Below are positions 85 through 55,368 of a stretch of DNA of 55,447 bases, in pieces (position 1 is the first letter of the stretch; each line of letters begins with the position of its first letter). This stretch comes from Chthoniobacterales bacterium (GTDB lineage: Bacteria; Verrucomicrobiota; Verrucomicrobiia; Chthoniobacterales; UBA10450): assembly GCA_013815325.1 (NCBI GenBank), contig JACDGM010000009.1, forward strand, positions 1-55,447, in the 5' to 3' direction. The notes under the pieces are model-generated. The model was not told the DNA's origin. It did no database searches and was given only the letters and a program-made list of their open reading frames with translations. The position numbers were made by a program, and so were the translations under genes.

Positions 85-100
85 CGGCGAAGCTGCTGTC

Positions 101-1261
101 CTAACGAGACCAGCTCGGCTCGGTGATTTTCCCCAGCCCGTCGAGCACTTTGGTCTTCCGGCTGCTCACGGTGTCGATCATGTAAAGCGTGCCGCCTTCA
201 GTAAAAATCAGGTGCCGCGAATCAGGTCCCCACGCCGGATCTTCGCCTGTGCCGACGGTGCGTTTGCCGCCGTTCGCGAGGTCGAGCACGACGATCTGAA
301 AGTCGCCGCCGGAACGGACGTTGAACGCCACTTTCTTCCCATCCGGCGACCAGCTCGGTTCCGTGCAGTAGCCGTAGCCGGTGGCGATCTGCCGTCCTTC
401 GCCGCCGCCTGACGAGATCCGGTAAAGTTGCGGTCCGCCCGTGCCGTCGAACGAGTAGATGATTTGATCACCGTCCGGCGACCAGGTCGGGCCGGATTCG
501 ACGCCGCGCGAATGGGTCAAGCGGCGCGCTCCGCCGCCACCCGCGCCCACCGTGTAAAGCTCCGGGTTGCCATCTTTGCTTATCGTTAGGGCAAGCCGCC
601 CGCCGTCGGGCGAAAAGGCCGCGCCGCTGTTCGTCCCCGGGAAGTTTACGATCCGGTTGCGCGCGCCACTCGCGAGATCGATCACGTAAACATCGGCGTA
701 ACCGCTCTGGTAACCGGTGTAGGCGATGCGCCCGCCGCCTGGGCTGAGCGAGGGATGCACGCTGATCGTGTTGTCGTGCGTTAGTTGACGGACGTGGCTG
801 CCATCGTAATCGGCGACATAAACTTCTTTCTTGCTGCTGCGGGTGGCGATGAAGGCGATTTTGCTCCCGGCGAGTCCCTTGTTCCCGGTGAGCGTTTCGA
901 TGATGTCATTTGCGAACTGATGCGCGCTGGCGCTCGCGCCGCCGTTGTACGTCTTCGAAAGGACCGTGCCGCCGCCGTGATCGACGACCTGCCCTTGCAG
1001 ACCGCCGCCCTCGGTCGTCCCCTTGATGATGTAGGAAGCATCGGCGCTCCCGAGATTGAAGAGGCCGGAAAGAGTTAGGTCTTTTCGCACAATCCCTGTG
1101 GCAGTGGCGCCGTCGCTCCCACCCAGCCCGGCGACGTTCACGTTGATCCGATCGCCTTTGCTCACCGTGATCGTGGGCACCTCTTCCGCAATGACAATTG
1201 CCCTCGTTAGGCAAAACAGCAGCGCGGCGCCGCCAATATTTGAAATTAGTCTTCTCCTCAT
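101..1261 (-). CDS. tolB: TolB, Tol-Pal system periplasmic beta-propeller protein
   Basis: Periplasmic partner of the Tol-Pal envelope complex, which keeps the outer membrane attached and constricting during division. The 386 residues start with a signal peptide (basic RRR, then a hydrophobic core to about residue 25), continue with the TolB N-terminal domain, and from about residue 130 show repeated PD40/WD40-like blades with the recurring pattern SPDG..IAY and ..LT. The length is close to the usual 400-430. The ATG overlaps the stop of the upstream tolA-like gene by four bases (ATGA at 1258-1261), so translation is probably coupled. The TAG stop (101-103) lies inside a copy of the CCTAACGA motif. 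The end of the operon carries no pal gene. Identity is firm from fold and context. Confidence 0.93.
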   Translation of the reverse strand: MRRRLISNIGGAALLFCLTRAIVIAEEVPTITVSKGDRINVNVAGLGGSDGATATGIVRKDLTLSGLFNLGSADASYIIKGTTEGGGLQGQVVDHGGGTVLSKTYNGGASASAHQFANDIIETLTGNKGLAGSKIAFIATRSSKKEVYVADYDGSHVRQLTHDNTISVHPSLSPGGGRIAYTGYQSGYADVYVIDLASGARNRIVNFPGTNSGAAFSPDGGRLALTISKDGNPELYTVGAGGGGARRLTHSRGVESGPTWSPDGDQIIYSFDGTGGPQLYRISSGGGEGRQIATGYGYCTEPSWSPDGKKVAFNVRSGGDFQIVVLDLANGGKRTVGTGEDPAWGPDSRHLIFTEGGTLYMIDTVSSRKTKVLDGLGKITEPSWSR

Positions 1262-2193
1262 TGGCCGGAACTTAATTCGAAGTTGATATTCACGTCATAA
1301 TAATTGTCGCCCAACCCGGAAGGCAACGCGTCGACCTGCTTGACGCGCGCGGCGGCCGCCGTCACTGAGTCGTCCACGACCGGATTGCCGGAGGATTTCG
1401 CGATCGCATACTCGGAAATACGGCCGTCTTTCTGGATACGAATGCGCAGCAGAACGGAAAGTTTGGCGCTGTGCAGGACCGAAGTCGGCTGCACCCATTC
1501 GCTGTAAAAGCGGTCGTGCAACATGCCGCCGTACCAACCGAACTCCGAGGCGCCGCCTGCGCCTTCGCCATGACCGCCGGAACCGCTTTTGCCTTTGCTT
1601 TCGCCGTCGCCCTTGCCTGCGGCGATCGCTTTTTTAGCCGGCGTCTCCGTTGCTGACTCCTCGTCGCTATCACCCTCCGTCTCTTTATTCAGTGCGGCTT
1701 TTACGATCGCTTTTTTCTTCGCAGTCTCCTTGTCGGCCTCTTCGTCCGGCGTCGGCTTGGGCTTGTGTTTCGGCGTCGCTTTTTTCTTCGGCGTCGCCGA
1801 AGACTTGGGCTTCGGAGTCTGCTTCGGCGTCGGACGCGGGGTTGGCTTCGGAGTCCGCTTTGGAGTGGGTGTCGGAGTTTCGGTCGGAGGCGGCGTGGCC
1901 GATGGAGTCGCGGACGGAAGCTCGATCTCGCTTTTCGCGCTCGGAAGAGCTTCCGGCGTTGCTTCCTCCGTCGGTTCGTTAGGCGTTTGCGCGGGTGTTT
2001 CCGCCGGAGCTACCGTCGGAGCCGCGGTCGCGGCTGCGGACGATTCGCTGCCGCCGGCCCCGCCTTCCATCCAGACGATCTCTTTCGGCGCGCGCTTCGG
2101 CGCACGACTCCACCAGAGCAGCCCGAGCAGGACGACGAGATGGACCAGCCCAACGATCGTGACGTTGCGCCAGAAACGCGCGTCCCGCGTCAT
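1258..2193 (-). CDS. tolA: TolA/TonB-type energy transducer
   Basis: Links the TolQ-TolR proton-driven motor in the inner membrane to periplasmic partners. The 311-residue protein has a short cytoplasmic N-terminus, one transmembrane helix at about residues 10-27, a long Pro/Thr/Lys-rich spacer with repeated TPKPTP-type units (about 95-150), a charged Glu/Lys and Gly-rich stretch, and a C-terminal TonB/TolA domain from about residue 225 (LRIRIQKDGRISEYAI). The domain order matches TolA; the C-terminal fold is closer to the TonB pattern, so either name is defensible. Position between tolR and tolB favours the Tol role. It begins only three bases after the tolR stop. Confidence 0.85.
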   Translation of the reverse strand: MTRDARFWRNVTIVGLVHLVVLLGLLWWSRAPKRAPKEIVWMEGGAGGSESSAAATAAPTVAPAETPAQTPNEPTEEATPEALPSAKSEIELPSATPSATPPPTETPTPTPKRTPKPTPRPTPKQTPKPKSSATPKKKATPKHKPKPTPDEEADKETAKKKAIVKAALNKETEGDSDEESATETPAKKAIAAGKGDGESKGKSGSGGHGEGAGGASEFGWYGGMLHDRFYSEWVQPTSVLHSAKLSVLLRIRIQKDGRISEYAIAKSSGNPVVDDSVTAAAARVKQVDALPSGLGDNYYDVNINFELSSGQ

Positions 2194-2196
2194 GCG

Positions 2197-2613
2197 CTAC
2201 GGCGTCTCTTCCTTCGTCGCGATGCCGACCTTGGTGATCTCGGCGCGTTGCAGCGCGTCCATCAGACCAACGAGTTTCTGCACCGGCAAATCGCGGTCCG
2301 GCCGGATGACGACGGCGACGTTAGGGTCGGCTTGTTTGAGCTCGGCCAGGCGCACTTGGAGCGCCGCGGGCTCGACCACTTCCTCGTTTAGCCTAACGAG
2401 TTCGTTGCGATCCATCGAGAGCGTTTGCACGGCCGCCGGATTGAGCGGCGCGTTCGTCGTGCCGCTCGAGGGGATGATGAGCGTCTTGCTGTTCTCGAGG
2501 AGGGGGGTCGTGATCATAAAAATGATCAGGAGAACGAAAGCAAGATCGAGCAGCGGAGTGATGTTGATCTCCGAGAGAGTGGAGAGGGAGGTGCGGCTGG
2601 AATAACGGCGCAT
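2197..2613 (-). CDS. tolR: TolR/ExbD biopolymer transport protein
   Basis: Stator-associated component of the Tol motor. The 138 residues have a short cytoplasmic N-terminus, a single transmembrane helix at about 20-40 with the conserved membrane Asp (TPLLDLAFVLLIIFMITTP), and a periplasmic ExbD-type domain. Length is typical. The A of its ATG (2611-2613) is also the last base of a CCTAACGA motif on the minus strand, so motif and start codon overlap. It is separated from tolQ by a 187-base gap filled by a palindromic repeat, whereas the downstream genes are tightly packed. Confidence 0.92.
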   Translation of the reverse strand: MRRYSSRTSLSTLSEINITPLLDLAFVLLIIFMITTPLLENSKTLIIPSSGTTNAPLNPAAVQTLSMDRNELVRLNEEVVEPAALQVRLAELKQADPNVAVVIRPDRDLPVQKLVGLMDALQRAEITKVGIATKEETP

Positions 2614-2628
2614 CGTTAGGCAGGGATC

Positions 2629-2780: not shown

Positions 2781-2800
2781 ACGTTTGGTGGCTCGCTTTT

Positions 2801-3622: not shown

Positions 3623-4570
3623 TCACTTCTGACGGAAGATCGGGGCCGTCTGTTCAGCGCGAATTTTCCCGACGATGATGAAGGCGAGCCCAATCGCGAT
3701 GAGGAAAAAAGAGAAGAACTGACCTCGGGTGAAGCCGGCAATAAGCGACGCGTCCGGTTCGCGAAAGTATTCCAACACGATCCGAAAGATCGCGTAGCAG
3801 ACGAAAAACAAGCCGGTCAGGACGCCGTTAGGCTGGCGCGTGCGTGTGCGCACGAGCCAGAGAATGATGAAGAGAAGAACCCCCTCGAGGAGGGCCTCGT
3901 AAATTTGCGACGGATGCCGCGGCCTCAGGATTGGGCGGAGCGCTTCGCGCAGCAATGGACGTCTTTGCAGGCTGGCAATAACCGCATCTGGACTCGTTAG
4001 GCCGGGATCGATCTGTTGCGCCACCATCATGGCGCGATCGGCTTTCGCGACATTGTCAGGCTCGAGCAATTCCTTCGGGAAGAGCATCGCCCACGGAACG
4101 GTCGTGACGCGGCCGTAAAGCTCGCCGTTGATGAAATTCGCGCAGCGCCCGAAGAAGAGCCCGACCGGCGCCACGACGACAAGATTGTCGCCCAAATTCG
4201 TCCAGGAAATTTTGTGCCGCCACGAATACCAAAAGGTGAACGCGATCAGCCCAAACATGCCGCCGTGACTCGACATTCCGCCCTCCCAAACGGCGAAAAC
4301 CGAGAGCGGCTCACGGAGCATTTCAGGTCGATAAAAAAAAACGTAGCCGAGGCGGCCGCCGAGCATCACGCCAAAGAGCGCACCCCAGGTGATGAAGTCG
4401 CCCACCTCTTCCACGCGCAACTGCGTGTAGCCGCGTTCCGCGAGAATGCGCAACAGCCACAACCCGCCGGCGAACGCCATGACGTAGGCCAGCCCATACC
4501 AGCGCGGGCCGTAGTCGCCCCAGATGTGAAAGATGAATGGGTCGAAATCGTCGAGGTAGTAGGCGAGCAT
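3623..4570 (-). CDS. lgt: Prolipoprotein diacylglyceryl transferase (copy 1)
   Basis: Transfers diacylglycerol from phosphatidylglycerol to the lipobox cysteine of prolipoproteins in the inner membrane. The 315 residues carry about seven transmembrane segments. The Lgt signature GRCANFINGELYGR is at 141-154, His102 lies in SSHGGM, and RHPSQIYEALLEG is present further on, all as in functional enzymes. A segment of about 45 residues after the signature (DNVAKADRAMMVAQ onwards) is longer than in Escherichia coli. A second complete copy lies at 32664-33590. It is followed on the same strand by tolQ after a 57-base gap. Confidence 0.95.
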   Translation of the reverse strand: MLAYYLDDFDPFIFHIWGDYGPRWYGLAYVMAFAGGLWLLRILAERGYTQLRVEEVGDFITWGALFGVMLGGRLGYVFFYRPEMLREPLSVFAVWEGGMSSHGGMFGLIAFTFWYSWRHKISWTNLGDNLVVVAPVGLFFGRCANFINGELYGRVTTVPWAMLFPKELLEPDNVAKADRAMMVAQQIDPGLTSPDAVIASLQRRPLLREALRPILRPRHPSQIYEALLEGVLLFIILWLVRTRTRQPNGVLTGLFFVCYAIFRIVLEYFREPDASLIAGFTRGQFFSFFLIAIGLAFIIVGKIRAEQTAPIFRQK

Positions 4571-4806: not shown

Positions 4807-5383
4807 CTAACGGTGGCCGGGACCATGTTCATTACCGCCCATGTTTCCTTGACTACCTCGCTCCTGCATCTCCCGAAAGGCGTCCGCGCTGATGGCGACG
4901 ACGTTCGGTGCTCGAAGGGATTGTTCCTCGACCCAACGTCCACCGAGATTGCTGCCCATCTCGCCCCTAACGAAGAAATAGCGCTTGCCGTTGATGACTT
5001 TGACGTTGTCGCGACTAAGTGCGCGTGTGCTCTCGACTTGCCCGGTCATCTTGATCGGGTTTTTGACATCCATCCTGCCGGCGACACCGCCGGCCGCGAA
5101 TCTCTCTCCGGCCACGGCATTGGAGATGAGCGGCTTCTGCCAGCGAAGAGGATGAGCATATATTGGTCGCCCTTTACCGCCGCACTTTTCGAGCTGAACT
5201 GCACCACATATTGGCCCGGCCGAAGCTCCGCGGTCGCGAAGTTCCGTTGGCATTCGTCGCCCCTTTGAAGGCGAGCTTCGAGTTCGCATCGGACACGGTT
5301 ACATTCATCAAAGGAATCCCGTAGGCGGCGGCGGTGAAAAGTAGGATCAATGTGAACAGAACGTTACGGACCATGGTTTTCAT
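4807..5383 (-). pseudogene. Secreted protein gene broken by two single-base frameshifts
   Basis: Reading leftwards from ATG at 5383, the first frame gives a good signal peptide (VRNVLFTLILLFTAAAYG) and a beta-rich start (VTVSDANSKLAFKGATNANG). The coherent sequence then jumps one frame (NFATAELRPGQYVVQFSSKS, then AAVKGDQYMLIL), and jumps again into a third frame (QKPLISNAVAGERFAAGGVA to the TAG at 4807-4809). Adding one base at a GG-AA junction near 5252 and one near 5149 would restore about 190 continuous residues. The parts fit a small periplasmic protein with a carboxypeptidase-regulatory-like start; the family is not recognised. Either a recent pseudogene or assembly indels at short homopolymers. 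Confidence 0.6.
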
Positions 5384-5642
5384 GCGGCGATGTGCCGAAT
5401 CGCGAAGAAGGTGACAATCGTTAACTTTGAAGTTTCGCCGGTGCCTCGAGCCGTTCATTTGCGTTTACCGCGGGCCGCGCCACTCCTGTTCTGTAACGGC
5501 GCGCTTGAAACGAAAGCTGAGCCGCGGAAGCGCCAGTTTGGTGGAATTCGAGGAAAGGCTCAGCCGCCCCCGGCTCGTTAGGCACAGCGGTGAATTGCGG
5601 AATCGCGATTGGCTGGAAATACCGCTTCACGGAGCGAAAAGT

Positions 5643-8600
5643 CTACAGCGTTTTCGATGCACTGCGGCTTTGCGCGAGCACTTCACGCAAAAACGGCGCG
5701 GTACGGCTGAGCCGGTTTTTCGCCACCTCTTCTGGCGTGCCCACCGCGACGATCTCTCCACCTAACGAACCTGCTTCCGGCCCGACGTCGACCACATAGT
5801 CGGCTTCCGCGATCACGCTCAGGTTGTGCTCGATCACGATCACGGTGTTGCCGTCATCGACGAGGCGATGGATGACGTTGAGGAGCAATTCCACGTCGGC
5901 CATGTGCAATCCGATGGTCGGTTCCTCCAGGAGATAGAGCGTCGACTTCGGCGTCCGCATTTTGCGCAACCGCTCGTTTTGGGCGCGTCCGAGGCCGCGC
6001 GTAAGTTTGGTCGCGAGCTTGAGCCGCTGCGCTTCACCGCCGCTCAAGGTCGGGCTCGGCTGACCGAGTTTCAGGTAACCGAGCCCGGTCTCGACTAACA
6101 ATGAAAGCGGCCGCGCGATTTTTTGGTTTGCGGCAAAAAATGCCGCAGCCTGCCCGATCGTCATATTCATGACGTCGCCGATGCTGCGCTCGTGGTAGAG
6201 CACCTCGAGGGTCTGCGGATTGTAGCGTTTCCCGGCGCAATCCTCGCACGGCACGTAGCTGCTCGGGAGGAAGCTCATCTCGAGCTTGAGCACGCCCTGT
6301 CCACTGCAGGTTTCGCAGCGCCCGCCTTCGGTGTTGAAGGAAAAACGACTCGCGGTGTAGCCGCGCACGCGCGCGACCGGCAACTGCGCGAAGAGGCTCC
6401 GGATTTCGTCGAAGACCTTGATGTAAGTCGCGGGCGTCGAGCGCGAGGTTTTGCCGATGGGCGATTGATCGACTTCGTAGATGGCCTCGAGGAACTCGGC
6501 GCCAGAGATCCCTGCCCGGGTAGCGCATGCGTCCCGCGTGCTGGTTGACGCATCTCGCGGCGACGAATTTTTCCTTGCACTCGACGCACTGAGGGAAGTT
6601 CGCGACGGTACCGTAACGGATGCGAAGTAAGGGCCGGGCTTTCCAACACCGTCGCCAGCACGCGAGCCGCGTGCGCTACCCAGGCTCTGCTGCACCGCCG
6701 GGAGCAAGACCGAACGCATCAGTGTCGATTTTCCCGAGCCGGAAATGCCGGTGATGACGGTGAGCCGGCCAATGGGAAAGCGAACGTCGACGTGCTTCAA
6801 ATTATGGGCGTGCGCGTCACGGATTTCCAACCAGTGCTCCACCTCGCCTAACGAACGCCTGACTTTGCGCACTGGATGACAGAGCGGCGTGCGCAGACAA
6901 CGCCCGGTCTGCGACGCGGAGACCTCTTTGATGTCGCGGAGCGTGCCTGCCGCCACTACTTCGCCGCCGTGCACCCCCGCGCCGGGCCCGAGATCGATGA
7001 TGTGGTCGGCGCGGCGCATCGTCTCCTCGTCGTGCTCGACGATGACGAGCGAGTTCCCCTTTTCGCGCAGAGCGGTGAGCGTCTCAAGGAGCCGCACGTT
7101 GTCGCGCGCATGCAGTCCGATGGTCGGTTCATCCAGGACGTAAAGCACGCCACGCAGATTCGAGCCGAGCTGCGCGGCGAGCCGGATGCGTTGCGATTCG
7201 CCTCCGCTCAAAGTTTTTGCAGAACGCCCGAGCGCGAGATAACCGAGCCCGACGTTTTCCATGAACCGAAGACGCTGTTCGATCTCCGGCACGAGGTCGG
7301 CCGCGATCACTTTCTGGGTGCCGCGGAAGCGCAGTTTACCAACCAGAGTGAGCGCTTCGCCGGCTGAACGCGCGGCGAAGTCGTCAATCGTTTTCCCCTG
7401 CAGCCGCACGTGACGCGCGACCGGATTCAAGCGCGCGCCGTGGCATTCCGTGCAGGGAATTGCTTCGCCTTCATCGACCGATTCAAATTGCCGCTCCGCG
7501 TTGAGCTCGTTTTCGAGCATCGAGTCGCCAGTCTCCTCCTCGTTCTGCTGGAGTTTATCGTTCCAGATTTCGCCAAAACCGGCGCACCCTTCGCACCAGC
7601 CGTGCGGCGAGTTAAAGGAAAACAAACGCGGATCGAGCTCTTCAAAGGCGCGGCCGCAACCCGGGCAACTCATCTCCGTGCTCATGACGGTGAGGCGATT
7701 TTTCGCGTCGAGCAGATGGGCCGTGCCACGGCCGATCTGGAGGGCGCGCTGCACGAGATTGCGTGCCTTGAGAATGCGCTTCGCATCGATCGCACCGACC
7801 ACCGCGTCGATCGTGTGTTCCTTGAATCGTTCCAGTTTGCGAAAGCGTGTGATCGGGATCAGCTCGCGATCAACGTAGAGCGTATCAAACCCCTGGCGCT
7901 CGGCCCAGCGTGCGACATCGGTGTGAAAACCTTTGCGCGCTTTCACGAGCGGCGCGAGCACCTTGAGCGGGCCGCGACGCGCGGCCGTTTCCAACTGCCT
8001 AACGATCTCGGCAACGCTCTGCTTTTCCACCGGCAGATCGCAGTCGGGACAAAATTGGGTTCCTGCTTTCGCGAAGAGGAGCCGGAGAAAATGGTAAACC
8101 TCCGTAACCGTGGCGACGGTCGATTTCCCGCCGCCGCGCGTGACGCGCTGTTCGATCGCAACCGTCGGCGGGAGCCCCTCGATCAGGTCGACGTCGGGCT
8201 TCTCGAGTTGTTCGACGAATTGCCGCGCATAGGGCGACATGCTGTCGAGAAAGCGGCGCTGGCCTTCGGCGAAGAGGAGATCAAACGCGATCGTGGATTT
8301 ACCTGAGCCGCTCAGGCCGGTGATGACGACCATTTTGTCGCGCGGGATCGTTAGGGAGATATTTTTGAGGTTGTGCTCGCGCGCGCCGTGAATCCGTATG
8401 GCGCGAGAGGTTGCGCCGTAGCGGGGTGGCGTCTCCGCGGCTATCGCAAGCTCGGAAAAATTGTCATCCCGAGCGGATGCGAGGGACCTCCCGGACCAGT
8501 TTGAGCCGCTGCGAGGTCCCTCGCCCTCTTCGCGGCTCGGGATGACAAGCGTTTTTGAGGCGCGCCCAGGATTGAGGACGCCGTCCAGATATTTCGCCGT

Positions 8601-15202: not shown

Positions 15203-15230
15203 TCTCTTGGACGCGATTTGCCTAACGAGT

Positions 15231-34650: not shown

Positions 34651-34663
34651 GTAGTCGTTAGGC

Positions 34664-40741: not shown

Positions 40742-40783
40742 GCGAGCCGCAACATCACTGCCGCGCGCGGAAGAGTTTAGAAA

Positions 40784-45015: not shown

Positions 45016-46944
45016 TTGGCAAAAAAACCCACAGCACACGTCCGCGCGAGAAAGCCCTCGAAAGTCGCCGCGGTCGCGTCCAAGAAGCCAGGGCGTCCGT
45101 CGGGTTCAACCAAGAACTCGGCCGGCCTCGCAAAGGTGAAACGTCCTCGCGGCCGACCCCGGAAAAATTCTTTGCTAGCGCCGCCGGACGTGAAGCGCAG
45201 TCATGGCGCGCCCGCTTCGAAAAGCTCGCGCGGGCATTCTGACGGCAACCGCAAGCCGGCTCCTGCCATTTCTCACGAAAGTGCTGGCGAGAACGGCGCC
45301 GCCTCCATGAATGGCGCGAGCCAGACTCAGGCGCACGTTCGGGAGCTGATGACACTGGCGAAAGAGCAGGGCTATCTCACCTTCGATGACTTGAATGACG
45401 CGTTGCCCGCGGAGGTCACCGATCCCGAGGAGCTGGATCAGATTTTGATGCGGCTGCGCAAGCTGGAGATCAACATCATCGAGGCCTCCGAGGTTGACCG
45501 TTACAAAGATGGGAAAAAAGAGAGCGAGGAGGAAGAAGAAAAGCCCGAGCCCAAGCTCGACATCCTCGACGACCCAGTGCGGATGTACCTGAAACAGATG
45601 GGCCAGGTGCCGCTGCTCACTCGCGAGCAGGAGGTGGAAATTTCCAAACGCATCGAGGAAGCGGAGTCGATGGTGCAAACTCACATCAACCGTTTTGGTT
45701 TCGTCGCCCGCGCCCACCTCGATCTCGCGGCCAAACTGGTCCAAGGCGGCGAGCGTTTCGATCGGGTGATTCTCGATAAAAAAATTGAGAGCCGCGAGCG
45801 CTATTTGAAGGCGCTGCCGGGCCTTTGCCGAAAGGTGCAGAAAATGAGCGTCGAGCTCCAGGGGCAGTATGAAGAACTAACGCAGCGTGAGCGCCGCGAT
45901 CCGGAGCAGATGAAGAAGTTCGAAAAGGCCGTAGCCAGGCTGCAATCGCTGTACCCGCAGTTCTTTTTTAAGCAGCGCGTGACGGAGGAATTCGTTCACC
46001 TGGCGGATTTCCATTTCTCGCTGCTGCGGAGTGTGCAGGAGGAAATGAGAAATCGTTCCGCGACGCGCCGGAAAGATGCATTGCAAAAAAAGGTGCGTGC
46101 GCTGGAGACGACGCTCTGGCTTTCCATCACCGAATTCGGCGACCGCTACGCGGAATTGCGCAACTGGCTCCGCCAGGCGCTCCGCGCCAAAACAGAAATG
46201 GTCGAAGCCAATCTGCGGCTCGTCATCTCCATCGCGAAGAAATACACCAACCGCGGCCTCTCGTTTCTCGACCTCATCCAAGAGGGCAACATGGGCCTGA
46301 TGAAAGCGGTAGAGAAATTCGAGTACCGCCGCGGCTATAAATTTTCCACCTACGCAACCTGGTGGATCCGGCAGGCGATCACCCGCTCGATCGCCGACCA
46401 GGCCCGGACCATCCGCATTCCGGTGCACATGATCGAGACGATCAACAAACTCATGCGGGTGCAGAAGCAATTGCTCCAGGAATATGGACGCGAGCCGACG
46501 CCGGACGAGGTGGCCGAGGAAATTCTGCTGCCGGTCGACCGAGTGCGCGCCGTCCTGAAAATGGCGCAGCAACCCATCTCGCTGCAGGCTCCGGTCGGTG
46601 AGAGCGAGGAGACGAACTTCGGCGATTTCATCGAGGACAAATCAGCCGAGAACCCGAGCGACATGACGGCGATCGCACTTCTAAAGGAGAAAATCAGAGA
46701 CGTGCTTGAAACATTAACCGACCGCGAGCGTCAAGTTCTCGAACAGCGCTTCGGCTTGGTCGATGGCTACAGCCGCACGCTCGAAGAAGTGGGCCGTCAA
46801 TTTCGCGTGACCCGTGAGCGGATTCGCCAGATAGAGGCGAAAGCGCTGCGCAAAATGCGTCACCCGACGAGAATTCGGCAGCTTGAGGGATTCCTCGAAG
46901 CTGCCGATCTCCAGACGATCGCGAAACCGCTGCCCTCCGCCTAA
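45016..46944 (+). CDS. rpoD: Principal sigma factor RpoD (sigma-70)
   Basis: Housekeeping sigma factor of 642 residues. A Lys/Arg/Pro-rich N-terminal extension (about 1-95) precedes region 1.1 ([20 protein letters not shown]), region 1.2 ([20 protein letters not shown]), a non-conserved insert, regions 2.1-2.4 ([20 protein letters not shown], then [20 protein letters not shown]), region 3 and region 4.2 ([20 protein letters not shown]). The start appears to be TTG (45016). Its TAA stop lies in a CCTAACGA motif that also supplies the TAG stop of the convergent gene at 46941. Confidence 0.97.
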
Positions 46945-47219
46945 CGATGACGGAAGCCGCGGCGACCGTTACGTAGGACGACCACGGGTCGGCGGTAAAT
47001 GAAAGGCCGACGATAAACGATCGGCCCGCCGTATCCATACCCGTACGCGCCGTAGTAGGGATACCCGGCATAAGGATAACCGCAGTAACCGCCCACGGGA
47101 TAAGCGATCGGCAATCCAATCCCTATGCCGATCGATACGCGCGCCTCAGATTTTGGCGCGGCAACAAATGCAAATGCCCCGGCGACCGCTGCAATCAGAA
47201 GAAATTTTTTCCAGTTCAT
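46941..47219 (-). CDS. Small secreted Gly/Tyr-rich protein
   Basis: 92 residues: signal peptide ([20 protein letters not shown]), a short beta-like stretch, then repeated Gly-Tyr-Pro units ([20 protein letters not shown]) and an Arg-rich C-terminus ([21 protein letters not shown]). Similar low-complexity secreted peptides are common, but no function is known. The ribosome site is unusually strong (AAGGAGGTGA, complementary to the 16S end), so high expression is likely. The stop TAG overlaps the rpoD TAA by four bases in the convergent orientation. Confidence 0.75.
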
Positions 47220-47272: not shown

Positions 47273-48313
47273 CTATTCACTGTCGTCTCGGCCCCATCGC
47301 GGGTAACCGCTGATGCAGAGATCGGATCCGATCCGCGAGCAGTCCATCCCGGTGAGGCGCGCGCCAAAGCGTGTGGCGGCGGCTCCTCTGCCGCCTGTCG
47401 CGGGAACCACCCCGCCCGTGAGAATGGGCGCGAGGTAAAACTGCACTTTATCCACGAGGTGCCCGTCGAACGCCTGCCCGAGCACGTCGCCTCCGCCTTC
47501 AATGAGAACGCTTGTGATTTCTCTCCGCCCGAGATCCGCCAAGACTGAGGCGAGCGTTTTGCCGCGATAAAACAAAGTCCGGGCCGCGAAGCAATCGGTG
47601 AAAAGGTGAGCGGCGCGCGGAAGATTGCCGGAACGGGACATGACAATTCTCCACGGCTGCCTGGCGCCGGCGACGCCCCGCGTAGTTAGGCGCGGGTTGT
47701 CCTGGCGCAGTGTTTCCGCGCCAATCAAAATCGCATCGACCTGCGCCCGCAGCATCCGGGCGTGCCGGCGCGAAGCCGCGCTCGTGAGCCAGCGGCTCTC
47801 GTTAGGCGATCTCGTTAGGCGGCCATCGAGGCTCATTCCGCATTTTGCGATGACGAACGGCCGGCCCGTCACGATCCATTTGTTAAAACTCTCATTCAGC
47901 CGGCTGCATTCTTCGGCGAAGACGCCACTCGTCACTTCTATGCCCGCGCTTTCCAGCTGGCGCACCGCCCGACCGGCGTGAGCCGGGTTCACATCTATCG
48001 CGCCGATGACAATCCGTTTGAGGCCAGAGTGCACAATGGCGTCTGTGCATGGCGGCGTGCGGCCGGTCGTTGAACAGGGCTCCAGAGTGACGTAAAGAGT
48101 CGCTGAGCGGAGGGAACGCCGTCCTGCAGCCGCGAGGCATTCAATCTCTGCGTGAGGCAACCCGCTTGCCCGGTGATAACCGGTGGCAATGATGCGTCCG
48201 CACTGCACGAGCGCAGCGCCGACGGCTGGATTCGGGCTCGCATTCCCGAGTCCTTTACGTGCCTCCAGGAGCGCGGCTCGCATGAATCTTTCATCAGATG
48301 TCTTCGTCATCAT
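47273..48313 (-). CDS. ribD: Bifunctional riboflavin biosynthesis deaminase/reductase RibD
   Basis: Deaminates and then reduces the pyrimidine intermediate of riboflavin synthesis. In 346 residues, the N-terminal cytidine-deaminase-like domain has His54-Ala-Glu56 and Cys80/Cys89 in EPCSTTGRTPPC, which bind zinc. The C-terminal reductase domain starts near residue 150 (RPFVIAKCGMSLDGR, later SVLIEGGGDVLGQAF). Two TCGTTAGGC motifs 13 bases apart (47799 and 47812) are in the middle of the gene. Not grouped with other rib genes here. Confidence 0.95.
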   Translation of the reverse strand: MMTKTSDERFMRAALLEARKGLGNASPNPAVGAALVQCGRIIATGYHRASGLPHAEIECLAAAGRRSLRSATLYVTLEPCSTTGRTPPCTDAIVHSGLKRIVIGAIDVNPAHAGRAVRQLESAGIEVTSGVFAEECSRLNESFNKWIVTGRPFVIAKCGMSLDGRLTRSPNESRWLTSAASRRHARMLRAQVDAILIGAETLRQDNPRLTTRGVAGARQPWRIVMSRSGNLPRAAHLFTDCFAARTLFYRGKTLASVLADLGRREITSVLIEGGGDVLGQAFDGHLVDKVQFYLAPILTGGVVPATGGRGAAATRFGARLTGMDCSRIGSDLCISGYPRWGRDDSE

Positions 48314-49465: not shown

Positions 49466-49490
49466 ATTCAATTCGGCTACGCGATTGGAG

Positions 49491-49582: not shown

Positions 49583-50620
49583 ATGGTCTCCAAAACTGAA
49601 GAGAAACCCACCGAAGATAAACTCATCACGGCCCGCAACAAAAACCTCGACCTCGCCATCCAACAGATCGCCAAAGATTACGGCGACGGGGCGATCATGC
49701 GCCTCGGGGACGATAAGATTGTTGATATCGACGTTATCCCGACCGGCAATATTTTGATCGACCGCGCGCTCGGTGTCGGCGGCGTGCCGCGGGGCCGCGT
49801 CGTCGAGGTTTTCGGTCCTGAATCCTCTGGCAAAACGACCCTCACCCTAACGATCATCGCCCAGGCGCAAAAACGTGGCGGCCTGGCGGCGTTCATCGAC
49901 GTCGAGCACGCGCTCGATCCGCAATACGCGCGCCGGCTGGGAGTGGATCTGGACGACCTGCTCGTCTCGCAACCGAGCTCGGGCGAGGAAGCCCTGCGCA
50001 TCTGCGAGACTCTCGTTAGGTCAAACGCGCTCGACGTTATCGTGCTCGATTCCGTCGCCGCACTCGTCACAAAGGCCGAGCTCGAAGGCGAGATTGGGGA
50101 CACCACGGTCGGCGCTCAGGCACGCCTGATGAGCGCCGCTTTGCGCAAACTCACCTCGCTCATTTCCAAAGCGCGAACCTGCTGCATTTTCACGAACCAA
50201 ATCCGAGAGAAGATCGGCGTCATGTTCGGAAATCCGGAAACGACTCCCGGCGGCCGCGCGCTCAAGTTTTACTCCAGCGTCCGCATCGACATCCGGCGCA
50301 TCGGCGCGATCAAGCAGACTGACGGCGTCGTCACAGGCAACCGCACGCGGGTGAAAGTCGTGAAGAACAAAGTCGCGCCGCCTTTCACCGAAGCCGAGTT
50401 CGACATTATGTACAACGAGGGTATTTCTTCGACCGGCGCGCTGCTCGATCTCGCGCTCGAAAAGCAGATCGTCGAGAAACGCGGGTCATGGTTGAGCTAC
50501 AAAGGTGCGCAACTGGCGCAAGGCCGCGACGCCGCGAAGGAAGTGCTGAAAAACGATCCCGCTCTCTACGAAGAAATCGAGATCGCGGTCAAAGCGAAGC
50601 TCGACGAAGACAAAAAGTAG
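49583..50620 (+). CDS. recA: RecA recombinase
   Basis: Forms filaments on single-stranded DNA, drives homologous strand exchange and activates the SOS response. 345 residues with Walker A GPESSGKT at 78-85, the Walker B region [11 protein letters not shown], the L1 and L2 loops ([30 protein letters not shown]) and a short C-terminal acidic end. Length is typical. Two CCTAACGA motifs in the gene force CTA-ACG (Leu-Thr) and GTT-AGG (Val-Arg) codons. No clear LexA box is visible upstream. Confidence 0.97.
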
Positions 50621-51372: not shown

Positions 51373-54264
51373 ATGACCTCCACCGAAATTCGCCAGAGCT
51401 TCCTCGATTTTTTCCGGGAGAAACAGCACACCATCGTGCCCTCCTCCTCGCTCCTGCCCGACTCCCCCAACCTCCTTTTCACGAACGCGGGCATGAATCA
51501 ATTCGTGCCTATTTTTCTCGGGCAAGAGACCGCGCCCTACCGGCCGCCGCGCGCTGCCGACGCCCAGAAATGCATCCGCGCCGGGGGCAAGCACAACGAC
51601 CTCGACGAAGTAGGCCTCGACACCTACCACCACACCTTTTTCGAGATGCTCGGGAACTGGAGCTTCGGCGATTACTTCAAGAAAGAAGCAATCGAGTGGG
51701 CTTGGGAGTTGGTCGTTAGGCGTTGGGGCCTCCCGCCCGAGCGACTCTACGCCACCGTCTACCGCCCCGGGCCTAACGAACCGTCGCAATTCGACGAGGA
51801 AGCGCACGACCACTGGAAAGCGCTCTTCGAAAAAGCCGGGCTCGATCCCGCCATGCACGTCGTGAACGGGAGCAAAGCGGACAACTTCTGGATGATGGGC
51901 GACACGGGCCCCTGCGGCCCCTGCTCCGAGTTGCACGTCGATCTCACGCCCGCCGGCGACACCCGCGGTTCGTTGGTCAACGCCGGCGACGCGCGCTGCA
52001 TCGAAATCTGGAATCTGGTTTTCATCCAGTTCAACGCCAATCCCGATGGCACTTTCGTTCCCCTGCCCGCGCGGCACGTCGATACCGGCATGGGCTTCGA
52101 GCGTGTCACCGCGATCCTCCAGGGCACTAAAAACTTCACCGACTTCAGCGGGAAGATCTCGAACTACGAGACGGATATCTTCCGTCCGATCTTCGACGAG
52201 ATCGAAAAGCTGAGCGGCAAAACCTACGGCGGGACGCTGCCCGACGTGGCGCGAGCTTCTAGCTTGCGAGATTCTGAAACACCCAAGCTGGAAGCTCGCG
52301 CCACTCCAGAACAAATCGCGACCGACATCGCCTTCAGGGTTATCGCCGACCACATCCGCACCCTGAGCTTCGCCATCGCCGACGGCATCCAACCCGGCAA
52401 CACCGACCGCAACTACGTCCTCCGCCGCATCCTGCGCCGCGCCGTCCGCTACGGCCGTTCGCTCGGCTTCAAGGAGCCGTTTTTCTACAAGCTCGTCGCC
52501 GTCCTCGCTCGCACGGTGGGCGAGGTTTTCCCCGAAGTCCGCGCGAAGCAAAAGCACGTGGAGGAAGTGCTGAAGCGGGAGGAGGAGGCGTTTAATAGGA
52601 CGCTCGATGCGGGCATGGAAATCCTGTCCGGTTTCTTCTTCGACGCGGTAACGAAAAGCCTGCTCAGCGAAGATTGGAATCTACTTCAAATGATCGATGC
52701 TGTTGGACGGCACGAGCTCTCAGATGCCCGCGCCTCCGACCAAAATTGGCCAGCAGTGGTTGCTGTGGCGAAGGCGCGGAACCCGGATTGGACTCCCGCC
52801 TGCGTCCCGCCGATTTCCGGAAAAGACGCTTTTAAGCTCTACGACACCTACGGATTTCCACTTGATTTGACCGAACTGATAGCCCGCGAGCGTGGCTTGG
52901 CGGTAGACACTTCTGGCTTCGAAAAATACATGGAAGAGCAGCGCGCCCGCGCTCGCGCTGCACAAAAGACACAGGTCATCGCTCTTGCGGACACCGGCGT
53001 AATGAATTCCCCTTCAACCCATTTTATTGGATATGACTGGCTTTCTATCGGGCAGACGAAAGTTCTAGGAACCGACGGAAAATGGCTGATCACTGCTGAG
53101 TCGCCATTTTTCCCGGATATGGGTGGGCAGATTTGGGATACGGGCTGGGTGGTAGAAGGCGCGCGAATGTTCGAGGTCAAGAGCGTTCATAAGGTTGGTA
53201 ACGGTGTCTTTGTTCACTGGAGTGAAGAAGACTTTGATCTGAAGGCAGGCGACACGGTGCAAATGCGCGTCGATCCCGTCCGCCGTGCCGCGATTCAGAG
53301 GCACCACACCGTCACGCATCTGCTCCACTGGGCTCTGCACGAAGTCGTGAGCAAGGAAGCCACTCAAAAAGGCTCCTTCGTCGGCCCCGACAAGCTGACC
53401 TTCGACTTCAACAGTGCCGCGCTCACGCCCGCGCAGGTGCGCGACATCGAGCGACTCGTGAACGAACGCATTGTCGAAAACTCCGGCGTCTCCTGGACCG
53501 AAGTGCCCTACGCCGACGTGCGCGGCCGGGCCGACATCATGCAATTCTTCGGCGATAAATACGGCGAGACCGTACGCGTGGTCCAGATCGGCGGCGCGCC
53601 CACGCAGCTCGACGGCTACTCGATGGAACTCTGCGCCGGCACCCATACCCGCGACACCGGCGAGATCGGCCTTTTTCGCATCAATTCCGAAGCCGCCATT
53701 GCCGCCGGCGTCCGCCGCATCGAAGCCGTCGCCGGGCTCCACGCCTACGACCTCGCCACCGCTGATACCCAGCGCCTCCACGCACTTTCCACCACGCTCA
53801 ACACTCCCGTTTCCGACCTGGAAAAGCGCGTCGAAAGCCTGCTCGCGCAGCAAAAGGAAAGGGAGAAAGAATTCGAGTCCGTTTTAAAGCACCAGGCCCA
53901 CGATGTTGTGAAGAATGGATTAAAGGACGTCGATGAGGCGGCGTCTGTACCGAATTGGATCGCAAAGCTGCCACTTGACGATTACGGAGTGATACTCCTC
54001 CCGAACGTTCTCGACGCCCTCAAGGTCCGCCAGTTCCGTGGCGTCGCTGTGCTCGGAGGAGTAGCTAACGGTTCAGTGCAACTAGGAGCCTTCGTTTCGC
54101 CTGACTTCACGGCGAGATTCCAAGCGGGAAGACTCATCCAGCAGATCGCGCCGGTCGTCGGCGGCAAAGGCGGCGGCCGCCCTGACAACGCGCGCGGCGC
54201 CGGGAAGGATGCGACGAAGCTCGACGAGGCCCTCGCGAAAGCGCGCTCACTGTTGTTCGGTTAA
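51373..54264 (+). CDS. alaS: Alanyl-tRNA synthetase with an in-frame repeat
   Basis: 963 residues, longer than the usual 870-880. Class II catalytic domain first (EIRQSFLDFFREKQH, TYHHTFFEMLGNWSFGDYF), then the tRNA-recognition region, the editing domain with HxxxH (RHHTVTHLLHWALHE) and Cys-xxx-His (CAGTHTRDTGEIGLF), and the C-terminal C-Ala domain (GGKGGGRPDNARGAG). A palindromic repeat (52246-52304) encodes about 20 extra residues near 292-311. A further segment of about 60 residues precedes GKDAFKLYDTYGFPLDLTEL. The stretch 52650-53260 is visibly less GC-rich at third positions than the rest. Confidence 0.96.
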   Translation: MTSTEIRQSFLDFFREKQHTIVPSSSLLPDSPNLLFTNAGMNQFVPIFLGQETAPYRPPRAADAQKCIRAGGKHNDLDEVGLDTYHHTFFEMLGNWSFGDYFKKEAIEWAWELVVRRWGLPPERLYATVYRPGPNEPSQFDEEAHDHWKALFEKAGLDPAMHVVNGSKADNFWMMGDTGPCGPCSELHVDLTPAGDTRGSLVNAGDARCIEIWNLVFIQFNANPDGTFVPLPARHVDTGMGFERVTAILQGTKNFTDFSGKISNYETDIFRPIFDEIEKLSGKTYGGTLPDVARASSLRDSETPKLEARATPEQIATDIAFRVIADHIRTLSFAIADGIQPGNTDRNYVLRRILRRAVRYGRSLGFKEPFFYKLVAVLARTVGEVFPEVRAKQKHVEEVLKREEEAFNRTLDAGMEILSGFFFDAVTKSLLSEDWNLLQMIDAVGRHELSDARASDQNWPAVVAVAKARNPDWTPACVPPISGKDAFKLYDTYGFPLDLTELIARERGLAVDTSGFEKYMEEQRARARAAQKTQVIALADTGVMNSPSTHFIGYDWLSIGQTKVLGTDGKWLITAESPFFPDMGGQIWDTGWVVEGARMFEVKSVHKVGNGVFVHWSEEDFDLKAGDTVQMRVDPVRRAAIQRHHTVTHLLHWALHEVVSKEATQKGSFVGPDKLTFDFNSAALTPAQVRDIERLVNERIVENSGVSWTEVPYADVRGRADIMQFFGDKYGETVRVVQIGGAPTQLDGYSMELCAGTHTRDTGEIGLFRINSEAAIAAGVRRIEAVAGLHAYDLATADTQRLHALSTTLNTPVSDLEKRVESLLAQQKEREKEFESVLKHQAHDVVKNGLKDVDEAASVPNWIAKLPLDDYGVILLPNVLDALKVRQFRGVAVLGGVANGSVQLGAFVSPDFTARFQAGRLIQQIAPVVGGKGGGRPDNARGAGKDATKLDEALAKARSLLFG
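52246..52304. repeat. GTGGCGCGAGCTT palindrome inside alaS
   Basis: The arms GTGGCGCGAGCTTCTAGCTTG and its inverted copy at 52284-52304 differ at one position. It is translated as ARASSLRDSETPKLEARAT within AlaS. A sister copy is at 54300-54378, just after the same gene. Confidence 0.9.
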
Positions 54265-54378: not shown

Positions 54379-54390
54379 ACCACGGTTTCC

Positions 54391-55122
54391 TTACTTCAGA
54401 GCCGCCCAGACGCGGTGAACGTCGTCGTGGTCCTCGAGCGTCTGGAGAAATTCGCCGACCTGCTGGCGATCTTCGTCGCTCAGCTCGGGGTAACTTTTCG
54501 CGACGTAACCGAGCTCGCTCGTGACGATGGTCCAGCCGTTGCCGCCAAGCCATTGCGAGACCGCGTGGAGATCGGTCGGCCCGGTGATGAATTGCGCGCC
54601 GCTCGTGCCCTCGGGAATTTCCGGGTCGTCCGCGTGGGTGAGCAGTTTGAAATCCTGCGCGCCAGATTCAATCGCAGCGGCTTCCGCGTCCGTCGCAGGA
54701 TCCGCGTGGTGCGCTTCGACGAGGCCGACGTGATCGAAGAGGAACTTGTTGCTGCCGGGCGCGCCGAGCTGCCCGCGTTTGAAGAGAACGCGGATCTCGG
54801 GCGCGGTGCGGTTTTTGTTGTCGGTCTGCACCTCGACGATGACGGGCACTTTGTTCGGTGCGTAGCCTTCGAAAACCACATGCTCGAGCTCGAGCTTCTC
54901 GCCGCCAATGCCGGCGCCCTTTTTGATCGCGCGCTCGATCACGTCCCGCGAAACGCTGGCGCGGCGCGCTTTTTCCACGACGGCGAAGAGGCGGGCGTTC
55001 CCGGTCGGGTCCGCTCCGCCGAGCTTCGCTGCGACCATGATTTCCTTCACCAATTTGCCGGTGACCTGACCTTTTTTGAGGCCGGCGACTTCGCGTTTGG
55101 CGTGCAGCCATTGTCGACCCAT
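54391..55122 (-). CDS. yebC: YebC/PmpR-family protein
   Basis: 243 residues of the YebC (DUF28) family: GRQWLHAKREVAGLKKGQVT, then AKLGGADPTGNARLFAVVEK and RASVSRDVIERAIKKGAG at the N-terminus, with VVFEGYAPNKVPVIVEVQTD and the ferredoxin-like domains after it. Members are known as transcriptional regulators and, more recently, as factors that help ribosomes through difficult proline stretches. Length and motifs are typical. Convergent with alaS. Confidence 0.93.
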   Translation of the reverse strand: MGRQWLHAKREVAGLKKGQVTGKLVKEIMVAAKLGGADPTGNARLFAVVEKARRASVSRDVIERAIKKGAGIGGEKLELEHVVFEGYAPNKVPVIVEVQTDNKNRTAPEIRVLFKRGQLGAPGSNKFLFDHVGLVEAHHADPATDAEAAAIESGAQDFKLLTHADDPEIPEGTSGAQFITGPTDLHAVSQWLGGNGWTIVTSELGYVAKSYPELSDEDRQQVGEFLQTLEDHDDVHRVWAALK

Positions 55123-55172
55123 GTGCTCATTTAAATCGGGCAGCTCAGAGGTGGCAAGTCCGCCGCAAGCAG

Positions 55173-55233
55173 TGTAGGGAGGGCGCTCCGCCGGCCGATT
55201 TCGATCTGGGGCGGCCGGAGCGCCGGTCTTACA
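55173..55233. repeat. GC-rich palindrome near the right end
   Basis: TGTAGGGAGGGCGCTCCG is mirrored by CGGAGCGCCGGTCTTACA (about 55216-55233). This resembles the TGTAGCGCGG family at 43023 in design, but the sequence is different. It lies upstream of yebC. Confidence 0.65.
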
Positions 55234-55368
55234 CCCCTCTTTCGACTGTTGGCGCGTGGATCAAAGCAGCATGGAACTCGGGCCAGAAAAACCTTGTGCT
55301 TACACTTATCACCATCGGGCTCGAGAGGTGAAAGTGCAGGAACAAAGTTTGCCTAACGAAACGCTTCC

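What the first reader, a model, noticed from the sequence alone, without database searches (positions are those of the whole stretch)
100..55359. A dispersed 8-9 base DNA motif, (G)CCTAACGA, is about 45-fold over-represented
Seen: about 63 exact copies of CCTAACGA on either strand. Start positions include 100, 583, 1204, 1976, 2392, 2613, 3994, 4966, 5575, 5761, 6847, 7998, 8348, 8775, 8880, 9939, 10168, 10913, 10980, 12131, 13006, 13127, 13523, 13936, 13997, 14816, 15221, 16042, 17024, 18790, 20649, 22768, 25459, 26903, 27367, 28168, 28301, 29355, 29732, 30574, 31233, 31768, 32661, 33394, 34331, 34390, 34655, 35328, 36155, 37117, 40102, 40735, 41434, 44004, 44479, 46940, 47799, 47812, 49846, 50013, 51713, 51772, 55352. 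With roughly 62% GC (my estimate) one or two would be expected. About 53 are preceded by G. Copies occur in every kind of gene and in all usable reading frames, coding Pro-Asn-Glu/Asp, Leu-Thr, Val-Arg or Ser-Leu-Gly. They force the rare codons CTA, TTA and AGG in a GC-rich genome, so selection acts on DNA and not on protein. Known parallels are DNA uptake sequences (Neisseria, Pasteurellaceae), Chi and KOPS sites, and HIP1. Balanced orientation argues against strongly polar Chi- or KOPS-like signals. An uptake-sequence or a methylation or nucleoid-protein site is my leading inference. I know of no described role for this word.
Basis: partly seen in the sequence, partly recalled or inferred. 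Interest (0 to 1): 0.95.

Follow-up and report, generated by a model that had tools for sequence, protein, structure and literature searches.

The report
A third bacterial DNA-uptake password
An eight-letter DNA word occurs about 3,400 times, on both strands and inside genes as well as between them, in the genome of a Verrucomicrobiota bacterium, and more than a thousand times in each of four relatives of its genus; it is likely a "password" that would let these bacteria recognise and take up DNA of their own kind, an ability reported so far for only two bacterial families.

Summary
CCTAACGA occurs 63 times in the window (0.73 expected) and 3,430 times in the 4.15-Mb genome, against 162 for the reversed word. 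The five genomes of the genus carry 1,410-4,605 copies of GCCTAACGA; 130 genomes of other families of the order carry 0-30. The logo is YYNGCCTAACGA. Sites use all four stop-free coding frames and both strands, 26-fold above synonymous codon shuffles. They avoid each other below about 300 bp and show no strong strand polarity, unlike Chi and KOPS. The family has a second, unrelated dispersed word, TGTCGATCTT. It is near background in genera g1 and g2, yet one genome (G014) carries thousands of both. G014's sites for the first word are mostly not orthologous to the window's, so the word probably built up independently. Pilus ATPases, ComEC and DprA are present. Best explanation, inferred and untested: a DNA uptake sequence system with two dialects, independent of those in Neisseriaceae and Pasteurellaceae. 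The receptor is not identified. The main rival is a methylation-linked word of the HIP1 type.

The parts
100..107 (+). CCTAACGA
583..590 (-). CCTAACGA
1204..1211 (-). CCTAACGA
1976..1983 (-). CCTAACGA
2392..2399 (+). CCTAACGA
2613..2620 (-). CCTAACGA
3994..4001 (-). CCTAACGA
4966..4973 (+). CCTAACGA
5575..5582 (-). CCTAACGA
5761..5768 (+). CCTAACGA
6847..6854 (+). CCTAACGA
7998..8005 (+). CCTAACGA
8348..8355 (-). CCTAACGA
8775..8782 (+). CCTAACGA
8880..8887 (+). CCTAACGA
9939..9946 (+). CCTAACGA
10168..10175 (-). CCTAACGA
10913..10920 (-). CCTAACGA
10980..10987 (+). CCTAACGA
12131..12138 (-). CCTAACGA
13006..13013 (+). CCTAACGA
13127..13134 (-). CCTAACGA
13523..13530 (-). CCTAACGA
13936..13943 (+). 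CCTAACGA
13997..14004 (+). CCTAACGA
14816..14823 (+). CCTAACGA
15221..15228 (+). CCTAACGA
16042..16049 (-). CCTAACGA
17024..17031 (+). CCTAACGA
18790..18797 (+). CCTAACGA
20649..20656 (-). CCTAACGA
22768..22775 (-). CCTAACGA
25459..25466 (+). CCTAACGA
26903..26910 (+). CCTAACGA
27367..27374 (+). CCTAACGA
28168..28175 (-). CCTAACGA
28301..28308 (+). CCTAACGA
29355..29362 (+). CCTAACGA
29732..29739 (+). CCTAACGA
30574..30581 (-). CCTAACGA
31233..31240 (+). CCTAACGA
31768..31775 (-). CCTAACGA
32661..32668 (-). CCTAACGA
33394..33401 (+). CCTAACGA
34331..34338 (-). CCTAACGA
34390..34397 (-). CCTAACGA
34655..34662 (-). CCTAACGA
35328..35335 (+). CCTAACGA
36155..36162 (-). CCTAACGA
37117..37124 (-). 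CCTAACGA
40102..40109 (+). CCTAACGA
40735..40742 (-). CCTAACGA
41434..41441 (-). CCTAACGA
44004..44011 (+). CCTAACGA
44479..44486 (+). CCTAACGA
46940..46947 (+). CCTAACGA
47799..47806 (-). CCTAACGA
47812..47819 (-). CCTAACGA
49846..49853 (+). CCTAACGA
50013..50020 (-). CCTAACGA
51713..51720 (-). CCTAACGA
51772..51779 (+). CCTAACGA
55352..55359 (+). CCTAACGA

Best explanation
GCCTAACGA is repeated thousands of times across this genome and likely works as a DNA uptake sequence, a word by which a pilus-borne receptor would bind and pull in DNA from the bacterium's own kind. Shown: a non-palindromic word (YYNGCCTAACGA, strictest at the inner TAAC), about one per kb in the sampled pieces, on both strands, in coding and intergenic DNA alike, with a second unrelated word (TGTCGATCTT) in sister genera and both words in one genome. 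Inferred: a surface DNA receptor, probably a minor type IV pilin in the role that ComP has in Neisseria, prefers DNA carrying the word; retraction ATPases (PilT family, present) and a secretin bring it in; ComEC passes a single strand; DprA and RecA recombine it into the chromosome. Because fragments with the word are taken up and recombined more often, the word spreads by molecular drive into permissive positions. Two neighbouring sites on one fragment are redundant, which would explain why sites avoid each other. A change of receptor specificity would have produced the second dialect. The receptor gene is not identified, and uptake or competence of these bacteria has not been measured.
For: (1) Copy number and lineage: 3,430 CCTAACGA in 4.15 Mb. 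GCCTAACGA: 1,410-4,605 in 5 of 5 genomes of genus g1, 2,147 in g2, 1,802 in g11, 19-587 in the other 76 of 83 family genomes, 0-30 in the 130 order genomes outside the family. (2) Selection on DNA: 228 against 8.9 after synonymous shuffling, four usable frames equal. (3) No strand polarity over 22 pieces with five or more sites: chi2 18.8, p 0.655; genome totals are balanced in six of seven motif-rich genomes. (4) Short-range avoidance, pairs under 200 bp: G000 56 vs 91.8, G003 74 vs 89.2, G004 3 vs 9.7, G014 15 vs 25.2, and for the second word in G014 71 vs 102.0; two control words of moderate frequency show none, three others were too rare to judge. (5) Sites are conserved within the clade yet sit in permissive places: across five relatives 22 of 47 aligned site comparisons are exact, where 15-17% of background 8-mers are; in motif-poor G006 and G010, 14 of 16 have three or more mismatches (background 33-34%) and 0 of 16 are exact (background 12-13%). 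(6) Graded tolerance: one-off words enriched at outer positions 1, 2, 8 and 9, scarce at 4-7. (7) Second word TGTCGATCTT: 4,653 in G014, 996-1,509 in four g6 genomes, 19-29 in g1 and g2; densities of the two words anticorrelate over 80 genomes (rho -0.37; relatedness not corrected). (8) Build-up at other sites: an unrooted DnaG+RpoD tree splits G014, G006 and G010 from g1/g2 at 100/100; 1 of 8 window-region sites is exact in G014, yet G014's logo matches. (9) Machinery: ComEC in 28 of 30, PilT-family ATPases in 23 of 24, DprA in 22 of 24; the 0.9-Mb genome G043 lacks all three. PilB-, PilC- and secretin-family proteins in G000, and a ComEA-like HHH domain fused to a nuclease domain in G003 and G014. 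(10) Long motif-free stretches include a polysaccharide cluster, RHS genes and a phage-integrase element.
Against: No receptor identified. The competence and pilus genes occur across the whole order, so they do not track the motif. The ComEA domain model was found in 15 of 30 genomes, never over its cut-off, and not in G000 or G005. G000's ComEC is below the NCBIfam ComEC/Rec2 equivalog cut-off (158.5 against 190.05 bits) though over the domain models' cut-offs. Close sites are not arranged as inverted pairs, unlike the terminator-like pairs common for known uptake sequences; the second word's close pairs in G014 are instead in excess head-to-tail (49 of 71, p 0.002), which the model does not predict. 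The whole-genome count in G000 leans to one strand, 1,811 to 1,619 (p 0.001), unlike its relatives. The two words share no core, while known dialects within a family share one. Avoidance is weak in G003 below 100 bp (p 0.108) and absent for the second word below 50 bp. Most family members have few copies of word 1; the lowest (G145, about 7 per Mb) is no denser than the densest genome outside the family. Within genus g4 the two words correlate positively (rho 0.60, n 11). The island test was a look at a few of the longest gaps, not a statistic. The genomes are drafts, and the pieces used for site statistics were chosen by contig number or by gene search, not at random.
Confidence: 0.7

Rival explanations
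1. A HIP1-like word: an orphan DNA methyltransferase marks the word or its core, and a repair process tied to methylation creates and keeps it.
For: HIP words in cyanobacteria are frequent, are linked to orphan methyltransferases, and deviate mostly at their outer bases (PMC4390886, abstract), as here. PF01555 methyltransferases were found in 15 of 15 family genomes, and in the six loci read the same stand-alone one lies beside what I recognise as thiG, with no restriction gene seen in those few kb.
Against: HIPs are palindromic and this word is not. Motif-rich G005 and G014 each have one PF01555 gene, and it is related at 67-77% identity and in the same place to the one in motif-poor G006 and G016. 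All 8,000 scored database candidates match it at E 1e-20 or better. So no methyltransferase of this family is specific to motif-rich genomes. Such a drive predicts no mutual avoidance of sites (inference). Other methyltransferase families were not searched.
Confidence: 0.14
2. A binding site of a nucleoid or chromosome-organising protein, kept by selection for regular binding along the chromosome.
For: High density, both strands, spacing more even than random at short range.
Against: Thousands of sites in all usable coding frames at a cost to codon choice. Low counts in other genera of the family and near absence in other families of the order. Two unrelated words together in G014. Some long gaps at acquired-looking regions.
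Confidence: 0.08
3. A recombination or segregation signal of the Chi or KOPS kind.
For: Length and over-representation are Chi-like. The G000 total leans to one strand, 52.8% (p 0.001).
Against: No strand heterogeneity among pieces (chi2 18.8, df 22, p 0.655), and totals balanced in G001-G005 and G014 (49.1-51.2%). The piece test would miss a bias as small as 53 to 47.
Confidence: 0.03
4. Remnants of a mobile or integron-type recombination site; GCCTAAC equals the integron attC R-box consensus (recalled).
For: In another family (G038) GCCTAACGA is the outer box of what looks like a cassette array, with the partner box about 96 bp away (L282).
Against: No excess of inverted close pairs: 31 of 56 in G000, 29 of 74 in G003, 6 of 15 in G014. 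Sites lie inside conserved genes of the dnaG-rpoD-alaS region and several orthologous non-sites differ by single bases.
Confidence: 0.02

Closest known systems
DNA uptake sequence (DUS) of Neisseriaceae, receptor ComP
   Same: Short non-palindromic word in thousands of copies, dialects following lineages, graded single-base tolerance with a strict inner core, permissive sites that are themselves conserved, pili plus ComEC and DprA present.
   Different: Unrelated words in another phylum; the two words share no core; no excess of inverted pairs; receptor unknown; uptake not measured.
Uptake signal sequence (USS) of Pasteurellaceae, predicted receptor ComN/PpdA
   Same: A 9-base core, about one per kb in the sampled pieces, both strands, in genes.
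   Different: No AT-rich blocks within 40 bases downstream of word 1 beyond a slight rise in the first five, only a weak pyrimidine preference upstream; unrelated word.
HIP1 of cyanobacteria
   Same: Dispersed frequent word, deviations at the outer bases.
   Different: HIP1 is palindromic and tied to methyltransferases; no carrier-specific PF01555 enzyme here.
Chi and KOPS
   Same: Over-represented 8-mers (recalled).
   Different: Those are strand-polarised (recalled); this word is not, or at most very slightly.

Membership tests
DUS/USS uptake sequences | 9-12 base word in hundreds to thousands of copies, both strands, genome-wide | tested here: met
DUS/USS uptake sequences | Enrichment acts on DNA, in any coding frame | tested here: met
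   for both words in G014, (the second word uses its frames unevenly: 91, 87, 41, 35, 22, 3)
DUS/USS uptake sequences | Sites conserved among close relatives but in permissive positions | tested here: met
   one 18-kb region, 8-11 sites of the window per pair
DUS/USS uptake sequences | Scarce in recently acquired or diversifying regions | tested here: inconclusive
   six of the 14 longest gaps viewed, in five loci, ten proteins from three of those loci scanned; no statistic
DUS/USS uptake sequences | Natural-transformation machinery (T4P, ComEC, DprA) | tested here: met
   but also present in motif-poor genomes
DUS/USS uptake sequences | Dialects that follow lineages and share an inner core | tested here: inconclusive
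   lineage pattern met; shared core not met between the two words
DUS/USS uptake sequences | Frequent inverted pairs acting as terminators (common, not essential) | tested here: not met
DUS/USS uptake sequences | Word-specific receptor, a minor pilin such as ComP | tested here: inconclusive
   only a crude pilin scan of fetched pieces; no candidate named
DUS/USS uptake sequences | Preferential uptake of DNA with the word | not testable with these tools
   needs cells
HIP1-like words | Palindrome | tested here: not met
   sequence itself; logo
HIP1-like words | Methyltransferase present where the word is frequent | tested here: inconclusive
   PF01555 only: no carrier-specific gene; other families not searched
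Chi / KOPS | Strand polarity | tested here: not met
   slight lean in G000 alone
Integron attC | Paired inverted boxes about 50-150 bp apart (recalled) | tested here: not met
   contrast with L282

The most novel reading that the evidence does not exclude
A third, independently evolved DNA-uptake language, the first outside Proteobacteria, with two mutually unintelligible words in one bacterial family: a family of Verrucomicrobiota split into sexual dialect groups, and one bilingual species (G014) carrying 1,802 copies of GCCTAACGA and 4,653 of TGTCGATCTT, and so perhaps two receptors.
Probability: 0.5. Interest if true: 0.93.

Novelty: new variant of a known kind. Interest (0 to 1): 0.87.

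Why it matters
[quoted passage not shown] An independent case in another phylum would show that self-recognition in natural transformation evolves repeatedly. It would predict competence in a family that I saw here only as draft genomes, and give a ready trick for transforming them: put the word on the DNA. The two words, their separation in most genera and the bilingual genome make the origin and switching of uptake dialects directly testable.

Tried and rejected
Chi/KOPS: rejected on strand balance, with a slight lean left over in G000. attC: rejected for lack of paired boxes, although GCCTAAC equals the attC box as I recall it. Terminator pairs: no excess of inverted close pairs. Insertion of a mobile repeat: disfavoured because several orthologous non-sites differ by single bases. 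Carrier-specific PF01555 methyltransferase: none. A word common to the phylum: rejected; among 387 phylum genomes, 3 of which belong to this family, the highest outside it are three of genus g76 (61-133 copies) and G583 (59), then 29 in G444. Other dialects in motif-poor genera: the pieces of G006, G007 and G011 (137, 104 and 93 kb) show no third dispersed word of this strength; G006 shows REP-like repeats. An AlaRS tree was poorly resolved (20 of 45 inner branches open) and is used only to tie names to handles. Rfam had no hit in the window; promoters were not scanned. A pilin scan gave seven pilin-like frames, two in G003 and five in G014, none in G000's pieces, and none singled out. My first gene-calling script returned no genes and was replaced; only spacing and orientation are used.

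Full report
What is there. The window contains 63 exact copies of CCTAACGA at the coordinates given, 33 on the + and 30 on the - strand; shuffles give 0.73, and a second-order Markov model 0.82. 53 are preceded by G. The window is one whole contig of a 4.15-Mb draft genome (G000, 209 contigs, 94% complete) which holds 1,811 + 1,619 copies against 85 + 77 of the reversed word. In 452 kb of pieces of that genome, window included, there are 456 copies, 1.01 per kb. The logo over these is Y-Y-N-G(0.82)-CCTAACGA with a weak G at the next base. One-mismatch versions are common mainly at the outer positions: C or A at 1, A at 2, A at 8, G or T at 9. At the inner TAAC (positions 4-7) they are at or near the level of other families of the order, apart from 33 per Mb for G at position 5.

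Which organism. AlaRS homologs are Verrucomicrobiota. G003, in the same genus, is the named MAG 'Chthoniobacterales bacterium MGR_bin418': its contig C4 and the named record behind L025 have the same length of 19,741 bases, the two genomes give the same ComEA hit at the same place, and their AlaRS rows sit at zero distance. L020 (isolate AV26) and L014 (Spartobacteria bacterium palsa_1382) have AlaRS rows at zero distance from G031 and G016, in the same family. I believe the family is the one around Candidatus Udaeobacter; that is recalled and comes from no call.

Distribution. Of 213 genomes of the order, 83 belong to this family (f1). GCCTAACGA counts are 1,410-4,605 in genus g1 (5 genomes), 2,147 in G005 (g2), 1,802 in G014 (g11) and 19-587 in the other 76; in the 130 genomes of other families they are 0-30. 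The bottom of f1 (G145, about 7 per Mb) is not denser than the top outside f1. Across 387 genomes of the phylum nothing outside f1 comes near the high values; genus g76 (three genomes, 61-133) and G583 (59) are modestly raised.

It is the DNA that is selected. In 326 kb, 228 copies are counted in called genes where synonymous shuffling within genes gives 8.9. The four frames that avoid a stop are used equally (62, 57, 56, 53), and same and opposite strand equally (119, 109). Density is 0.95 per kb in called genes and 0.66 outside, and relative position in the gene is flat. My gene caller found 73% coding, so the outside class includes missed genes.

Polarity and mutual avoidance. Strand counts are homogeneous over the 22 pieces with five or more sites (chi2 18.8, p 0.655). 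Whole-genome totals, with arbitrary contig orientation, are balanced in G001-G005 and G014 (49.1-51.2% on one strand) but lean in G000 (52.8%, p 0.001), which I cannot explain; it is far from the polarity expected of Chi or KOPS. Holding local density fixed in 5-kb bins, pairs closer than 200 bp are fewer than expected in all five tests: G000 56 vs 91.8 (sd 7.1), G003 74 vs 89.2 (6.6), G004 3 vs 9.7 (2.6), G014 15 vs 25.2 (4.2), and the second word in G014 71 vs 102.0 (6.8). Below 100 bp G003 is not significant (p 0.108), and the second word shows no deficit below 50 bp. Of five control words two had enough pairs to judge and showed no deficit. Among pairs under 200 bp, inverted arrangements are 31 of 56 in G000, 29 of 74 in G003, 0 of 3 in G004 and 6 of 15 in G014; the second word in G014 has 22 of 71 inverted, a head-to-tail excess (p 0.002).

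A second word. G014 pieces revealed TGTCGATCTT. Genome-wide counts over 210 order genomes, 80 of them f1, are 4,653 in G014, 996-1,509 in four g6 genomes, 1,070 in g9, 715 in g12, 760 in g13, 147-1,016 in five g14 genomes, 74-755 in g5 (33 genomes) and 22-85 in g4, but 9-69 in g1, g2, g3, g7, g8 and g10, and 0-46 in the 130 genomes outside f1. In G014 it is present 364 times in 218 kb; 279 are counted in called genes against 24.4 after shuffling, with uneven use of frames, and it is placed independently of the first word. Over 80 f1 genomes the two densities anticorrelate (rho -0.37), also among 33 genomes of g5 (-0.51), but not in g7 (0.14, n 8) or g4 (0.60, n 11); relatedness is not corrected.

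Site history. In the 18-kb region around dnaG, rpoD and alaS, site comparisons from G000 to its five close relatives are exact in 22 of 47 (G003 7/9, G004 3/9, G001 4/11, G005 5/9, G002 3/9), where background 8-mers are exact in 15-17%; ten others are one base off. Against motif-poor G006 and G010, 0 of 16 are exact (background 12-13%) and 14 of 16 have three or more mismatches (background 33-34%); against G014, 1 of 8 is exact. Starting from G014, at most three sites align per relative and 0 or 1 is exact. An unrooted DnaG+RpoD tree of nine genomes splits G014, G006 and G010 from G000-G005 at 100/100. So the same word, with the same logo, seems to have accumulated at different places in two lineages. 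A shared reader explains this; shared ancestry of the sites does not. Sample sizes are small.

Machinery. ComEC is found in 28 of 30 genomes, PilT-family ATPases in 23 of 24 and DprA in 22 of 24. G000's ComEC has the DUF4131, Competence and lactamase-like domains, and PilB-, PilC- and secretin-family proteins are present. By NCBIfam the ComEC, PilB and secretin proteins fall below the curated equivalog cut-offs, and the secretin scores better as GspD than as PilQ. In G003 and G014 a ComEA-like helix-hairpin-helix domain is fused to a staphylococcal-nuclease domain. The ComEA model gave no hit in G000 (15 of 30 genomes with a match, none over the cut-off). These genes are order-wide, so they allow transformation but do not explain which genomes carry the word.

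Islands. I viewed six of the 14 longest motif-free stretches of the G000 pieces, in five loci. One holds polysaccharide, sulfotransferase and asparagine-synthase genes, one RHS genes, and one a phage integrase and a DUF5906 protein. The stretches in L084 and L097 hold genes that were not scanned. This fits acquired DNA but is not a statistic.

Rival: methylation. PF01555 methyltransferases occur in 15 of 15 family genomes. Six loci were read: in each a stand-alone one lies beside a gene that I recognise as thiG and another that looks like an HD-domain gene (neither was scanned). It is the only PF01555 match in motif-rich G005 and G014 and in motif-poor G006; G007, G008 and G011 also have one match each, not read. 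Identity among the six is 67-80%, and all 8,000 scored database candidates match at E 1e-20 or better, the 120 listed at 72-97% identity. It therefore cannot by itself set the dialect. Other methyltransferase families were not searched, so this rival stays open.

Literature. Seen: PMC12616744 abstract and introduction; PMC3630211, PMC2397512 and PMC12236230 passages; PMC1939737 and PMC4390886 abstracts and outlines; otherwise search listings only. A search for 'DNA uptake sequence' with 'Verrucomicrobia' gave one paper, on detecting gene transfer in metagenomes. GCCTAACGA occurs in 49 papers, of which the 20 listed have unrelated titles; CCTAACGA in 224, of which the 20 listed likewise. TGTCGATCTT was not searched for in papers. 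Within these searches of an open-licence library I found no description of the first word as a genomic signal. Passages of PMC2397512 report for Neisseria what is seen here in small: sites conserved yet in permissive places, absent from recently acquired genes. Passages of PMC3630211 report two dialects together in one genome, but differing by one base.

Verdict. The uptake reading explains lineage restriction, dialects, build-up at different sites, avoidance and lack of strong polarity together; no rival explains all of them. Uptake and receptor remain inferred.

Noticed in passing
window 52248-52305: A REP-like hairpin (arms GTGGCGCGAGCTTC.. / ..GAAGCTCGCGCCAC) lies inside the alaS open frame; similar stretches match elsewhere in relatives, some on both strands.
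   Followed up: partly
L023 and L016, whole loci: Palindromic TTGGCCAA (extended CTTGGCCAAG) is dispersed, 19 sites in 15.5 kb and 10 in 14.4 kb, in two other Verrucomicrobiota: a HIP1-like word.
   Followed up: partly
L054 1571-10468: A Verrucomicrobiales MAG carries CGTCAGCG 31 times in 11.5 kb on both strands (extended about CCGTCAGCGGC), another possible dispersed word.
   Followed up: partly
L282 7725-11710: What looks like an integron cassette array in G038 (other family), whose outer box is GCCTAACGA in several copies with a partner GTTAGGC about 96 bp away.
   Followed up: partly
L283 10585-12998: In G038, a genome poor in the word, a gene that I recognise as carB and its neighbour hold four copies of GCCTAAC(GA) in 2.4 kb; possibly DNA from a motif-rich donor.
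   Followed up: no
L197 9699-10583 and L198 10464-11483: ComEA-like helix-hairpin-helix domain fused to a staphylococcal-nuclease domain.
   Followed up: no
L284 1662-2471: Stand-alone N6/N4 DNA methyltransferase in a conserved place in the six family loci read, with thousands of relatives in public data.
   Followed up: partly
L123-L125, L264-L267 (G006) and G003 pieces: Repeats with words GTCATCCTGAG / TCATCCCGAG and AAGGACCTCA, REP-like by appearance.
   Followed up: no
genomes G397, G400, G409 (genus g76) and G583: Modestly raised GCCTAACGA counts (61-133 and 59) outside the family.
   Followed up: no
G014 pieces (L119-L122, L195, L198, L221-L225): Close pairs of TGTCGATCTT are head-to-tail in 49 of 71 cases, unexplained.
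   Followed up: no
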